Source: Candidatus Scotarchaeum otlingeri
Lineage (GTDB): Archaea > Thermoproteota > Nitrososphaeria > Geothermarchaeales > JDFR-13
Reading direction: 5' to 3'
DNA: 64,000 bases
Assembly (NCBI GenBank): GCA_002011075.2
Contig: MTMA02000006.1
Coordinates: 1,356,599 to 1,420,598, forward strand
The notes beneath the pieces were generated by a model that made no database searches, had not been told where the DNA came from, and saw only the letters and a program-made list of their open reading frames with translations. How positions within the stretch are numbered: position 1 is the stretch's first letter; each line of letters starts with the position of its first letter. This document shows, piece by piece, positions 280 through 25,228 of the stretch. Position numbers and translations under genes: made by a program.

Positions 280-1308
280 TTGAGCAGTCAAATAACTCTC
301 ACAGAAGAGGAGAAAAAGTGGTTAATGAACCAGTTAGAAATTATAAAGAAGATCCATCCAAATCAGTATAAAAGGATAATGAAAACCATAGCAACATTGA
401 AAAACAAAAATCTCCATGTGGCAAGGATATTTACTAAAAACCTAATCCCAATAATCGGCTTCATATCAAGATTTCACCAAAGAAGAAATACCAGTAAGAG
501 TTACCTCAATGTATTAGTCATCTTTAACAGCTACATAACGGTAACCTTCAAGAAGCACATAATGGAGATTGGAAATAGAGAGCTAGAGGCATATTTTAAC
601 TATGCAAAGGAGAAATACTCAAATAACACATTAGTTCTTCATAGAGATGTCTTAAGGGCATTCTATAGATATAATGATAAGGTAGAGATGGCAAAAAAGG
701 TAGGTCAATGGAAATTCATAAAAGAACATAAGTTCAAGGTGGACTTAACCTATGAAGAAATAATGAGAATTTTAGAGAATGTCGATGATGCGAGAGTCAG
801 ACTTGCAGTATTATTCATAGCTTTCAGCGGAATGCGGCCATCGGAGGCGCTTGGGATATGCTGGGGAGACATCGAGGAAACAGAAGATATGGCATTAGCC
901 AATATAAAATATAGACCAAGCATAAAGTATGGAGCAAAAGGGAAAAGCGGAGAGAGAACAGTGCCCATTAGTAAAGAAGCCATCATAGTACTCTCATATT
1001 TAAAACAGAAATACATCGAAAAATATCATACCTTACCATCTCAGGGCCAGAGAATTATAGATCTAAGCTATACAATGCTGAGAAAGAAATTCCTAAGGGC
1101 CGTGAATAGAGCTGGAATAAAGAATAAGCAGTATCCCATAACACTACACAAACTAAGACACTTCTTTGGACATTATTGGATGGATAAAGTTAGAGATATA
1201 GTTAAACTTAAGGAGATAATGGGGCACAGCGATATAAAAACAACACTGATCTATACGAAACCAACCAAGGAAGAAATAATACAAAAATATAAAGAATTAA
1301 ACGGATAA
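280..1308 (+). CDS. Tyrosine recombinase / integrase (XerC/XerD-like)
   Basis: ORF with catalytic motifs GMRPSEAL, LHKLRH, GHSDIKTTLIYTKP; TTG start. Confidence 0.93.
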   Translation: MSSQITLTEEEKKWLMNQLEIIKKIHPNQYKRIMKTIATLKNKNLHVARIFTKNLIPIIGFISRFHQRRNTSKSYLNVLVIFNSYITVTFKKHIMEIGNRELEAYFNYAKEKYSNNTLVLHRDVLRAFYRYNDKVEMAKKVGQWKFIKEHKFKVDLTYEEIMRILENVDDARVRLAVLFIAFSGMRPSEALGICWGDIEETEDMALANIKYRPSIKYGAKGKSGERTVPISKEAIIVLSYLKQKYIEKYHTLPSQGQRIIDLSYTMLRKKFLRAVNRAGIKNKQYPITLHKLRHFFGHYWMDKVRDIVKLKEIMGHSDIKTTLIYTKPTKEEIIQKYKELNG

Positions 1309-8037: not shown

Positions 8038-8985
8038 TCAGCCATAAAAGTCGCCTCTAACCTCCTTCTCATTAGAAAGTTTCCCAGATAATAGTCCTTC
8101 AAGGACAGTAGCCAACTTATCCATACTCTCAGTAAGCCTAGCTAGATTACTCTCCAACCGCAACACCTTATGATATAACGACTCGACCATATCCGGTAGA
8201 TCCTTGAACTTCTTTGCATCCTCGGCTGCCAACAAATAATTCTTCCTATTCCTAAAGCCAAGCTCCCCCTCGCTAGGGGGACTGCTATCAACGAAAAGCT
8301 CAGAGCCCTCCTTATCACTATAAGCGATATTCTTGAAGCCGCTAATGGTAAACGCCTTAGCAAGGGGATGATCAACAAACTCGAAACTAGGAGATCTATG
8401 AAGCTCAGGCGGACCAACCCTATACCCAGTCACAGAAACAAAATAATTAATGAACCTCAACGCCGTGTCATAGGCATAAGCAACACACTTAAAAGGATCA
8501 TCACTAACAACCCTCGAAACATAAACATAAAGAAACCTCGTAGTCTCCTCAACCCGCAACCCACCAAAAACAGCAAAACGCTTAACCCAATTCCGCAACA
8601 AAACATCCCCATCCCAACGAAAAACACCCCTACCCAAAACAGGAAACCTCAAACAAAACTCATCCATCCTCACCCTCAGCCCCTCTGAGAAATTTTTGAC
8701 ACTTCGCTCATGTAACTCATATAGTTCTGTGAGAAGCTGATGTCCCTCCTTAGTTAGTTCATATATACTTCCGTTGGAGGAGCGATATACGAATCTGATG
8801 TAGCCTAAGTTATGTAATTTTTTAATATAATATGATATAAGTTGCTTGGTAATACGCCTATCAAGATCCTGCGATATCTTTATAGCAAGTTTAGTTACGG
8901 TCCAACCTTTAGCAGGATTCTGAGAGAGATATTTTAACATCATATATGTCAAAAATTTCTGTAAAAATTTTTGACTTCTAACCAC
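8038..8985 (-). CDS. Winged-helix DNA-binding protein with C-terminal coiled coil
   Basis: N-terminal wHTH (WTVTKLAIKISQDLDRRITKQLISYYIKKLHNLGYIRFVY), C-terminal heptads. Confidence 0.65.
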   Translation of the reverse strand: MVRSQKFLQKFLTYMMLKYLSQNPAKGWTVTKLAIKISQDLDRRITKQLISYYIKKLHNLGYIRFVYRSSNGSIYELTKEGHQLLTELYELHERSVKNFSEGLRVRMDEFCLRFPVLGRGVFRWDGDVLLRNWVKRFAVFGGLRVEETTRFLYVYVSRVVSDDPFKCVAYAYDTALRFINYFVSVTGYRVGPPELHRSPSFEFVDHPLAKAFTISGFKNIAYSDKEGSELFVDSSPPSEGELGFRNRKNYLLAAEDAKKFKDLPDMVESLYHKVLRLESNLARLTESMDKLATVLEGLLSGKLSNEKEVRGDFYG

Positions 8986-9171: not shown

Positions 9172-9492
9172 TTATATTGACATTTCAAGGTCGAGCAAGG
9201 AATCCACCAGCTGATGCAACTGATCCAGATTCAATACGATGAATCCCCTGGACACCCATGTCTTAGGATCCTTTCGATAGTAACATAGATCCTCGACATG
9301 AAAGTTTCCTAGAAAAACTATCTCCACCTCCCCGGCCCCTCTATTTGTCAATTTAACTAGGATTCTGGGTTTTTCACCGGACTCTCTTGTGCAATCAACC
9401 TCTTTTTTAATCTCTGGAAGATAAATTCTGATGGCATCAATATCGATTAGGTATCTCTTTATGGCGGGAACTACTTTAATTTTAGACAACAT
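9172..9492 (-). CDS. Hypothetical protein
   Basis: ORF in operon-like array. Confidence 0.55.
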   Translation of the reverse strand: MLSKIKVVPAIKRYLIDIDAIRIYLPEIKKEVDCTRESGEKPRILVKLTNRGAGEVEIVFLGNFHVEDLCYYRKDPKTWVSRGFIVLNLDQLHQLVDSLLDLEMSI

Positions 9493-9493
9493 A

Positions 9494-9772
9494 TCACCTT
9501 AGAGAAAAATCGATGTTCTGTGGGTTCTTTCTATCATGATTTGCTTTTTTCATAAGAAGTATATCCAGAAGAGCTAAGGTGTTCCTTAGGCGTCTCGGAA
9601 TGCTTGTATTTAACTCAGGATCTAGTATTAGCGATATTCTATATAATGTATCGTGTTTTTTCTTTAGATCTTTGAGCTTATTAGGATCTAGTTGCAATAA
9701 CTCGTATTGCAGCTCTATACCTTTGGCTTCTAGGCCACCGTGATTATAAAAAAGGTAGGGTTTCCGCCTCAT
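9494..9772 (-). CDS. Hypothetical protein
   Basis: ORF in operon-like array. Confidence 0.5.
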   Translation of the reverse strand: MRRKPYLFYNHGGLEAKGIELQYELLQLDPNKLKDLKKKHDTLYRISLILDPELNTSIPRRLRNTLALLDILLMKKANHDRKNPQNIDFSLR

Positions 9773-9774
9773 AG

Positions 9775-10704
9775 TTAATCCCTCTCGTAAGCAAGGATGA
9801 TCTCAACTACCAATCGGTTTATTGTTTCTTTGGTAGGCTTCTCATAACTTAGCTCTAGTACCTTGTATCCCCTTCTCCTCAATGCATCTCTAAGCTCTTG
9901 ATCTCTATCTTCTCTACCACTATGAACAGGGCCATCTATGTATACAGCGAGTCTTTTATCTGGGAAGAAGAAATCTGGTATAGTCTGCTGAATAACTATG
10001 GGATGCTGAGTCAAAAAACCAGTTATACCGGATTCATTTAATGCATTAGCAATAGCTATCTCAATATTAGACACAGGATGATGCATTCTATCCCTAATAA
10101 TCTCTTCGGTGATAAGAACCCTTTCTCTCTCAGGCTCCATCTCGCCTTTATCCTCCTCAACCTCTGTAGTTTCCTCATATTCTGTATGTATGTTTTCAAT
10201 ACTTTTTTCAGTAGGGTGAACTAGTTCACCCTTATGTAAATCCGATATATGCTGTATATCAGGTCTGAACTCGACCTGCTTATACTCATCAGGCAATAAT
10301 TCCAATACATACCTCTTCGAGTAAGGCACATACTTGCTGTATATCTCTGAAGCAATCTTTTCTTTTGGTACTCCTTTTTTCTCTAGTTCTTTAGCCATCT
10401 CTAGAAGCATCCTTTGAGTCTCCTCCCTCTTCATCCTTCTCTGAACATTGCTATGTAGCTTAATCATGAGCTTAGCTATCTTCTCCGGGATCCCCAACTT
10501 CTCAGCTATTTTTCTTGAATCAACCTCATGAATTATATTTGCTCCAGCTTTAATTCGATGCCTACCAGACAATATCTCGCCATCATAATCCCTTATCACC
10601 GCATAAATCTGTCCAATCTGCTGAAGCGACCGCTTAAGGTTTTCAATAGTCTCCCTATCATACTCCTCAACCAATGCTAACACCCCCGCTCCTAGTAGCC
10701 TCAT
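9775..10704 (-). CDS. ParB-like N-terminal domain fused to C-terminal Vsr/DUF559-like PD-(D/E)XK nuclease domain
   Basis: ParB motif QQIGQIYAVIRDYDGEILSGRHRIKAG; nuclease motif IPDFFFPDKRLAVYIDGPVHSGREDRDQELRDALRRRGYKVLELSY. Confidence 0.7.
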   Translation of the reverse strand: MRLLGAGVLALVEEYDRETIENLKRSLQQIGQIYAVIRDYDGEILSGRHRIKAGANIIHEVDSRKIAEKLGIPEKIAKLMIKLHSNVQRRMKREETQRMLLEMAKELEKKGVPKEKIASEIYSKYVPYSKRYVLELLPDEYKQVEFRPDIQHISDLHKGELVHPTEKSIENIHTEYEETTEVEEDKGEMEPERERVLITEEIIRDRMHHPVSNIEIAIANALNESGITGFLTQHPIVIQQTIPDFFFPDKRLAVYIDGPVHSGREDRDQELRDALRRRGYKVLELSYEKPTKETINRLVVEIILAYERD

Positions 10705-10966
10705 TAAACTTGCCTATAACCTCAAGATTCTTAACATAATCCATGCCATCGGCCTTACCATAGGGATTAACAGCTAACTCGAACCTAACCCTATCCCCAG
10801 GCTTAACAACATACTGGACATATCCATCGTCATCTGGATATATCGGGCCACGCAAAATAAACCAGTTCCAATGAACCGCTATAGGCCTATTTCTACCATG
10901 AAGAAATATCCTGAACCATCTCGGCCTAATAAACTGTATAGCCTTGACAATTCCCTCCTCTATCAT
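10667..10966 (-). CDS. Hypothetical protein, beta-rich (OB-like?)
   Basis: ORF; ATGA overlap with upstream microORF. Confidence 0.5.
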   Translation of the reverse strand: MIEEGIVKAIQFIRPRWFRIFLHGRNRPIAVHWNWFILRGPIYPDDDGYVQYVVKPGDRVRFELAVNPYGKADGMDYVKNLEVIGKFNEATRSGGVSIG

Positions 10967-11061
10967 TCACTCTCACCTTCAAGGATCCTTCTAGCCTTAG
11001 CTATGGTCTCCTTAATCTCCTCAAGGAACTTTTTTGGAACAAGAACATACTCCTCATTCAT
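10963..11061 (-). CDS. Microprotein (32 aa, not in ORF track)
   Basis: Manual translation MNEEYVLVPKKFLEEIKETIAKARRILEGESE*; overlapping stop/start with 10966. Confidence 0.5.
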   Translation of the reverse strand: MNEEYVLVPKKFLEEIKETIAKARRILEGESE

Positions 11062-11416
11062 CGTTATCACCATGATAGGATAAGTAAAGCTTGACGGCCT
11101 TCAGGAGAAGATTGTTTATAGATGTTGCCTTCTTGAAAGCCTCTTCCTCCAGCATCTTATACAACTTCTCATCAACTATAAGTGGAACCAGATAGAGCTT
11201 ATTTAGAAGCAATGTAAGTTCCCAGTGATGCCCTTCGTAATCGGTGGGGACAGCATAAATTGCATTTAAACCATAATATATCGAGTTATATTTTAACCAC
11301 TCATTGAGTTCTCCAGGTATGTCGTCAAGATGCAATCCACCATACATGTATAGGTCAGATGTTTGGAGATTGAATATTTTACCTGGAAAAGTCTTTGACA
11401 TCGATGAATCGCTCAT
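11054..11416 (-). CDS. Hypothetical protein downstream of AbrB-like gene
   Basis: ORF directly abutting AbrB-like stop. Confidence 0.55.
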   Translation of the reverse strand: MSDSSMSKTFPGKIFNLQTSDLYMYGGLHLDDIPGELNEWLKYNSIYYGLNAIYAVPTDYEGHHWELTLLLNKLYLVPLIVDEKLYKMLEEEAFKKATSINNLLLKAVKLYLSYHGDNDE

Positions 11417-11581
11417 TTAACCGTTCACCTCCGTATTTCTCGGTATCTTTGAGATCGTTACTCTCACTATGTCCCCCTTATCTATACCCAAGACTTCCCT
11501 CACTTCTTGGGGAATGGTTATCTTTCCTTGGTCGAGAACCTTTGCCGGAAACTCCATTATTTCGATTTTTCGACTTTCCAT
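11417..11581 (-). CDS. AbrB/SpoVT family DNA-binding protein (54 aa, not in ORF track)
   Basis: Manual translation MESRKIEIMEFPAKVLDQGKITIPQEVREVLGIDKGDIVRVTISKIPRNTEVNG*. Confidence 0.85.
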   Translation of the reverse strand: MESRKIEIMEFPAKVLDQGKITIPQEVREVLGIDKGDIVRVTISKIPRNTEVNG

Positions 11582-11625: not shown

Positions 11626-11643
11626 TTTTCGATTAATCGAAAA
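11626..11643. promoter_or_regulatory. 18-bp perfect palindrome TTTTCGATTAATCGAAAA, candidate operator
   Basis: Lies directly upstream of the minus-strand TATA-like CTTATATATT for the AbrB operon, in a divergent intergenic region. Confidence 0.7.
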
Positions 11644-11706: not shown

Positions 11707-11976
11707 ATGATAGAGAAACTTTCAGGATCAATGATGAGAATACTAATACTCCTACACAATCACGGCGGAGAAGTAGAGAAATGGACCATATTGAAAAACG
11801 AAACTCGATTCAGCAATAGCAAACTAAATTCGGCGATCGAGAGGCTTATAAGCCTTGGTTTAATAAAAAAAGAGAAGACCTCTACGGCTCCGCCTACAAC
11901 AGTAATAGCCCTCACAGAAAAAGGAGAAAAGGTAACTGAGTGCCTAGTAAAGATTGAAGAGTTAATTCAATCCTAG
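11707..11976 (+). CDS. Winged-helix transcriptional regulator (MarR/PadR-like)
   Basis: MMRILILLHNHGGEVEKWTILKNETRFSNSKLNSAIERLISLGLIKKE...ALTEKGEKV. Confidence 0.75.
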   Translation: MIEKLSGSMMRILILLHNHGGEVEKWTILKNETRFSNSKLNSAIERLISLGLIKKEKTSTAPPTTVIALTEKGEKVTECLVKIEELIQS

Positions 11977-12300: not shown

Positions 12301-12636
12301 ATTCAATCCTTATCGCTATGCATCCTGCATTATTAATAAGCTTAGTGGATAAAGATGTAGCATAAAGAGGATAAAGCATTATCACGGGCTATAAATTTGA
12401 CATCAAGAGTGAGGAAAATTAAAGTAATATAGAAAAACTTCAGCAAGATAGGCTATTTATCTTATTTGTATCAACTGGCTATATCCAATTCGTCACTAGA
12501 TTCTGGATACACCTTGTTTATGCATATTTCTTAACAACTATTATAATCATGAGGGAACCGAAACTTTTATCCGATATCCGGCCGGCGGCGCCAACAAAAA
12601 GGTTCAGAGTCCTTCTAGCTTTGTAATATTAATCCT

Positions 12637-21670: not shown

Positions 21671-25228
<3,558 letters not shown>

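What the first reader, a model, noticed from the sequence alone, without database searches (positions are those of the whole stretch)
9775..11581. ParB-like domain fused to a Vsr/DUF559-like PD-(D/E)XK nuclease inside an AbrB-led operon
Seen: the 309-aa ORF has a ParB/Srx-type N-terminus (GQIYAVIRDYDGEILSGRHRIKAG) with a helical HTH-like segment, an acidic linker, then IPDFFFPDKRLAVYIDGPVHSGREDRDQELRDALRRRGYKVLEL, matching the Vsr/DUF559 pattern D...IDG..H...D..R...L...GY.VL. It follows an AbrB-like gene, a 120-aa protein, a 32-aa microprotein and a 99-aa protein with overlapping stops and starts; no ParA is visible. Inference: a sequence-specific or ParB-sliding nuclease used for plasmid competition, defense or element processing.
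Basis: partly seen in the sequence, partly recalled or inferred. Interest (0 to 1): 0.62.

Follow-up and report, generated by a model that had tools for sequence, protein, structure and literature searches.

The report
ParB–nuclease fusion with built-in binding site
A mobile DNA element in an archaeal chromosome encodes a protein that joins a DNA-partitioning (ParB-like) clamp to a DNA-cutting domain, and its gene carries what looks like the protein's own landing site, a perfect 20-letter palindrome, which suggests that the cutter is delivered to a chosen place on the element itself.

Summary
Window 9775-10704 (minus strand) is an intact 309-aa ORF: a divergent ParB N-domain plus HTH (residues ~17-142; no Pfam ParB hit, but 96.8% profile-profile probability and ParB as best PDB and Foldseek hits) and a DUF559 nuclease (207-302; 34.4 bits, cutoff 20.6) with Vsr-type catalytic residues intact. 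The fusion was found nowhere else in the genomes and collections searched.

New here: (1) the operon sits at the right end of a ~31.25-kb element integrated in tRNA-Asn. (2) The gene holds a perfect 20-bp palindrome, AGGGTGAACTAGTTCACCCT, just after the HTH; its core occurs once in the genome. A 53%-identical ParB-like gene elsewhere, lacking the nuclease, has TTGCGGAACTAGTTCCGCAA in the same linker, and distant HTH relatives have CTAG-centred palindromes there too. The arms differ between genes but stay self-complementary, so selection acts on the DNA: an intragenic parS-like site.

Best reading: an orphan ParB-type protein loads at its own site and delivers a nuclease to element DNA. ParB fusions are known; this nuclease partner and an archaeal intragenic parS were not found described. 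Binding, cleavage and purpose are inferred.

The parts
9775..10704 (-). 309-aa ORF: ParB-N/HTH fused to a DUF559 (Vsr-like PD-(D/E)XK) nuclease
   Evidence: ORF; DUF559; ParB
10279..10656 (-). ParB-like N-domain plus HTH, residues ~17-142; box II-like GRHRIKA (47-53), box III-like NVQRR (86-90), HTH ending in DEYK (139-142)
   Evidence: motif residues verified
10213..10232 (.). Intragenic 20-bp perfect palindrome AGGGTGAACTAGTTCACCCT, candidate parS-like loading site, in the linker just after the HTH
   Evidence: core GAACTAGTTC occurs once in the whole genome
10087..10269 (-). Acidic linker, residues ~146-206 (contains the palindrome)
   Evidence: sequence; low pLDDT 144-212
9799..10086 (-). 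DUF559/Vsr-like nuclease domain, residues 207-302; E215, D244, D257, H261, D268 retained
   Evidence: active-site mapping of a DUF559 Vsr-like protein in PMC12907096
10667..10966 (-). 99-aa protein, unknown
10963..11061 (-). 32-aa microprotein frame
11054..11416 (-). 120-aa protein with an Arc/RHH-like C-terminus
   Evidence: weak match to the RHH neighbour of the G519 relative
11417..11581 (-). 54-aa AbrB/MazE-type DNA-binding protein, first gene of the operon
9494..9772 (-). 92-aa protein downstream, unknown
9172..9492 (-). 106-aa protein downstream, unknown
11626..11643 (.). 18-bp palindrome TTTTCGATTAATCGAAAA in the divergent promoter region between the AbrB-led operon and a wHTH gene (11707-11976 +); likely operator
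12576..12600 (+). attR: 25-bp direct repeat ATCCGGCCGGCGGCGCCAACAAAAA; attL is the 3' end of tRNA-Asn, about 18.7 kb left of the window start
280..1308 (+). Second tyrosine integrase of the element (342 aa); the first (383 aa) lies next to attL outside the window

Best explanation
The gene encodes an orphan ParB-family protein of an integrated archaeal element. Its ParB-N/HTH part recognises a single parS-like palindrome inside its own gene; by analogy with ParB it would load there, probably in an NTP-controlled way, and could spread onto nearby element DNA. The flexible acidic linker tethers a Vsr/DUF559-type metal-dependent nuclease, so that nicking or cleavage is directed to element DNA around that site, most plausibly to process the element (start of transfer or replication, resolution or excision). 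Shown: the domains, the intact catalytic residues, the palindrome and its recurrence in relatives, and the integrated element. Inferred: that this protein binds this palindrome, nucleotide control, sliding, cleavage, and the biological purpose.
For: Domains. Catalytic residues kept relative to 11 stand-alone homologs and matching the mapping E73, D102, D115, H119 of Caulobacter VsrA, with the spacing D-13-D-4-H identical. Palindrome: the only 20-bp perfect gap-free palindrome in 140.6 kb of the chromosome; 0 of 3000 synonymous-codon shuffles of the gene give one, and 1 of 3000 for the G519 relative. The G519 relative carries TTGCGGAACTAGTTCCGCAA in the same linker, and distant HTH relatives carry CTAG-centred palindromes 12-16 aa after the same DE(Y/F)K motif: L077 TTGCGGCCCTAGGGCCGCAA, L053 GGCGCTACTAGTAGCGCC, L049/L081 GGCCCTAGGGCC. 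Control: none of 25 DUF559 genes has a 10/10 palindrome. The core is unique in the genome. Element.
Against: The fusion is a singleton, so the nuclease could be a recent, non-essential addition: ParB-like relatives have other C-termini. No binding, NTPase or cleavage data exist. ParB sequence similarity is below Pfam threshold, and the Foldseek E-values are weak (0.06 to 0.25) on a model of mean pLDDT 68. The relatives L028, L029 and L086 show no comparable palindrome, so the site is not universal. The 309-aa frame could also yield a separate nuclease from an internal start (M189).
Confidence: 0.45

Rival explanations
1. Exclusion or defence: the ParB part loads on related incoming elements that carry the same palindrome, or on any invading DNA, and the nuclease destroys them; the element's own copy is protected by regulation or by its own DNA methyltransferases.
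For: The element carries other DNA-conflict genes: a type II restriction enzyme (PADLOC E=1e-64) with an Eco57I-type methyltransferase, and a further N6/N4 methyltransferase. ParB-fold fusions on mobile elements, notably in prophages, have been suggested to act in such conflicts (PMC12704722).
Against: The only candidate site in the genome lies on the element itself; no PADLOC match for the protein; no evidence that the element's methyltransferases cover the palindrome.
Confidence: 0.25
2. Centromere or maintenance protein with an accessory nuclease: the ParB-HTH/palindrome pair does partition-, condensation- or copy-control-like work, or autoregulates the gene from within, and the DUF559 domain is a captured passenger of minor or repair function.
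For: The palindrome recurs in a relative without the nuclease, so the site serves the ParB part, not the nuclease. DUF559 is the only copy in the genome, consistent with capture.
Against: All catalytic residues are intact, which argues against a decaying passenger; no ParA in the element.
Confidence: 0.22
3. The intragenic palindrome is unrelated to the ParB part (for example a transcription pause, an operator of the AbrB or RHH protein, or chance).
For: Other DNA-binding proteins are encoded in the same operon, and one relative group (L028, L029, L086) lacks a palindrome.
Against: Chance is excluded at about 1 in 1000 or below in each of three genes, with the same CTAG centre and the same place just after the HTH. 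What the distant Nitrososphaeraceae genes share with this one is the HTH.
Confidence: 0.08

Closest known systems
pNOB8-type archaeal ParB-N (PDB 5k5a, 5k5d)
   Same: Best PDB relative of the N-domain by profile and by fold; archaeal mobile-element ParB
   Different: From general knowledge of pNOB8 (Schumacher 2015): its ParB has a CenpA-like C-domain and works with AspA and ParA; here the C-domain is a nuclease and no ParA is in the element
ParB-CTPase-fold fusions (PMC12704722), including ParB-HNH and ParB-methyltransferase
   Same: Orphan ParB fold on a mobile element fused to an effector enzyme
   Different: Vsr does not occur in the paper's text, and in the passages read HNH is the nuclease partner named; this ParB domain is too divergent for PF02195 and would escape a Pfam-based survey
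DUF559 / Vsr-like nucleases such as Caulobacter VsrA (PMC12907096)
   Same: PD-(D/E)XK core with E, D, D, H residues, the last three at equal spacing
   Different: Vsr-family model TIGR00632 is far below threshold (14.4 against 97.85 bits); here fused to a ParB-HTH instead of acting alone
parS sites of ParABS and repABC systems
   Same: Short perfect palindrome close to or inside the genes of its binding protein; repABC parS sites lie inside or close to the operon (PMC9040568)
   Different: Different sequence (CTAG-centred), one copy, archaeal orphan protein without ParA; binding untested
ParB-like genes of thaumarchaeal integrative-conjugative elements (PMC6563490)
   Same: ParB-like gene in an integrated element of archaea, no relaxase found there
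   Different: No nuclease fusion described, TFIIB genes are upstream there; VirB4/VirD4 not established in this element

Membership tests
ParB-CTPase fold (ParB N-domain) | Match to the curated ParB_N profile (PF02195) above its cutoff | tested here: not met
   No hit in the protein or in the genome
ParB-CTPase fold (ParB N-domain) | Remote homology in sequence profile and predicted fold | tested here: met
   PHROG_620 E=5e-4, hhalign 96.8%, PDB profile best hit ParB, Foldseek top 3 all ParB at weak E
ParB-CTPase fold (ParB N-domain) | Box II (GxxRxxA) and box III (ENxQR-like) motifs | tested here: met
   GRHRIKA 47-53 and NVQRR 86-90; the glutamate of ENxQR is absent
ParB-CTPase fold (ParB N-domain) | CTP or other NTP binding and hydrolysis, clamp formation | not testable with these tools
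   needs biochemistry
ParABS partition system | ParA partner in the operon or element | tested here: not met
   ParA-family ATPases only about 600 kb or more away in the chromosome
ParABS partition system | Palindromic parS-like site in or near the parB gene | tested here: met
   binding itself not tested
DUF559 (PF04480) | Score above Pfam gathering threshold | tested here: met
   34.4 against 20.6 bits
DUF559 (PF04480) | Catalytic residues of the Vsr-like PD-(D/E)XK site | tested here: met
   E215, D244, D257, H261, D268
Vsr mismatch endonuclease (TIGR00632) | Score above family cutoff | tested here: not met
   14.4 against 97.85 bits
Integrated mobile element | Direct-repeat att sites at a tRNA 3' end and an integrase | tested here: met
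   25-bp repeats, tRNA-Asn(GTT) with 11-nt intron, two tyrosine integrases

The most novel reading that the evidence does not exclude
Relaxases have not been found in the archaeal conjugative elements described; this protein would be a substitute in which a ParB-type clamp loads at an intragenic CTAG-centred palindrome and its Vsr-like domain nicks the element nearby to start transfer or replication, so that the palindrome acts as centromere and origin of transfer in one.
Probability: 0.15. Interest if true: 0.85.

Novelty: new variant of a known kind. Interest (0 to 1): 0.55.

Why it matters
It adds a nuclease partner to the growing list of ParB-fold fusions and gives a concrete candidate DNA target for an archaeal orphan ParB, so that site binding, NTP control and site-directed cleavage can all be tested on one small protein. 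The CTAG-centred intragenic palindrome is a sequence signature that could reveal parS-like sites in other archaeal mobile elements, where centromeres and transfer origins are mostly unknown. If the nuclease acts in cis, it would bear on how archaeal elements without relaxases start transfer.

Tried and rejected
Searched for the same fusion in 398 genomes of the phylum and 400 of the class (overlapping samples), plasmids and phages by tblastn, viral contigs and genome contigs: not found. The genome-contig scan used only two short peptide patterns, so it is not a strong negative. AlphaFold of the full protein with 3 sequences was poor (pLDDT 49) and its fold search is meaningless. PADLOC gives no defence family. 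A broken ParB-like frame next to a NOV_C domain gene in G684 (L035) looked like a second ParB-nuclease pairing but is interrupted by stops and not in one frame, so it was not used. ParB-like genes of family f6 and the ParB-methyltransferase genes show no significant palindrome, so the intragenic site is not general to all ParB-like genes. VirB4/HerA identity of the 692-aa element ATPase stays unproven.

Full report
Observation. The 309-aa ORF at window 9775-10704, minus strand, is real and intact, the fifth gene of an AbrB-led run of overlapping genes. Pfam finds DUF559 at residues 207-302 above threshold. The start codon is uncertain within about ten codons, which does not affect the domains.

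ParB half. Pfam's ParB_N does not match it, in the protein or anywhere in the genome. Remote evidence agrees from four sides: PHROG_620 'ParB-like partition protein' E=5e-4; a profile of four relatives has as best PDB hit a 'ParB domain protein nuclease', 5k5d, E=0.0019, with 5k5a third after an unrelated FAP360; hhalign against four proteins, three of which hit ParB_N in Pfam (one above its cutoff), gives 96.8% probability over 108 columns; and the AlphaFold model of residues 1-150 (pLDDT 67.6, two sequences) has three ParB chains as its top Foldseek hits, at weak E-values of 0.06 to 0.25. The motifs GRHRIKA and NVQRR are present.

Nuclease half. Aligned with 11 stand-alone homologs (33-41% identical), it keeps every invariant residue, among them E215, D244, D257, H261 and D268. 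For the DUF559 protein VsrA of Caulobacter, PMC12907096 maps E73, D102, D115, H119 and D124 onto the E. coli Vsr site; the spacing D-13-D-4-H is the same here. The acidic residue that, from general knowledge, DUF559 proteins often have two positions before this D257 is a tyrosine here, as in most of the stand-alone relatives, so an active site of Vsr type is the right comparison. It is the only DUF559 in the genome. No other fusion was found.

Surroundings. A 25-bp direct repeat lies at window -18654 and 12576-12600; the left copy is the 3' end of tRNA-Asn(GTT), which has an 11-nt intron. The element is about 31.25 kb, with two tyrosine integrases, a type II restriction-modification pair and another DNA methyltransferase, a P-loop ATPase of unproven type, and membrane proteins. 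The operon is near its right end; genes read as topoisomerase VI (from sequence, not profile-tested) lie just outside.

The palindrome. A scan of the element for gap-free or near-gap-free inverted repeats gave a perfect 20-bp palindrome inside the gene itself, at 10213-10232, AGGGTGAACTAGTTCACCCT. It encodes part of the linker (KGELVHP) just after the HTH. It is the only perfect 20-bp palindrome in 140.6 kb, and its 10-bp core occurs once in the genome. The 53%-identical relative in G519, in another family and with a different C-terminus, has TTGCGGAACTAGTTCCGCAA in the same linker. The outer arms differ, but each is self-complementary, so protein conservation cannot explain it. Synonymous-codon shuffles reach this in 0 of 3000 and 1 of 3000 cases. 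Distant relatives sharing the HTH in Nitrososphaeraceae (family f4; the name is my inference) carry CTAG-centred palindromes 12-16 residues after the same DE(Y/F)K motif: perfect in L077 (0 of 1000 shuffles), 9 of 10 in L053 (p=0.01), 8 of 10 in its ortholog L048 and in L049/L081, which are not significant alone. The 25 DUF559 control genes give no 10/10 case. Three other relatives and the f6 ParB-like genes do not have it. L077's gene is interrupted upstream by stops.

Interpretation. A palindrome under selection as DNA, beside the HTH that would read it, is what a parS site looks like, and parS sites inside or beside their own operon have bacterial precedent in repABC replicons. The ParB-like part would then place the nuclease on the element's own DNA. 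I favour processing of the element (0.45) over exclusion of other elements (0.25) and over a maintenance role with a passenger nuclease (0.22). Binding, nucleotide use, cleavage and purpose are all untested.

Comparison. A 2025 survey of the ParB-CTPase fold (PMC12704722) describes orphan fusions on mobile elements, among them ParB-HNH; 'Vsr' does not occur in its text, and DUF559 did not appear in the passages read. A full-text search for ParB together with DUF559 found no paper in the library held. The case is a new variant of a known kind.

Noticed in passing
window 21671-25222 (-): CDC48-like AAA ATPase interrupted by a long in-frame insertion between MSKWYGES and SEKRLRDVF that looks like an intein.
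   Followed up: no
L038:7573-15968 (left of the window, same element): Type II restriction enzyme plus Eco57I-type methyltransferase, and a separate N6/N4 DNA methyltransferase, inside the element.
   Followed up: partly
genome C6 near 1337945 (L041): tRNA-Asn(GTT) with an 11-nt intron, found only with an intron-aware ARAGORN run, serves as the attachment site.
   Followed up: yes
L034:8870-9220, L076:2941-3315, L077:3030-3470: A ribbon-helix-helix-like protein lies near the ParB-like/HTH gene in three distant loci, suggesting a conserved two-gene module.
   Followed up: partly
window 8948-8975: Inverted repeat GTCAAAAATTTctgtaaAAATTTTTGAC at the start of the 315-aa wHTH-like gene.
   Followed up: no
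L035:4945-5945: Broken ParB-like frame followed by a NOV_C-domain (possible PD-(D/E)XK) gene in G684.
   Followed up: partly
L109:1481-1500: CTAG-centred near-palindrome (9/10, p=0.02) in the linker of a short ParB-like gene of another archaeal family.
   Followed up: partly
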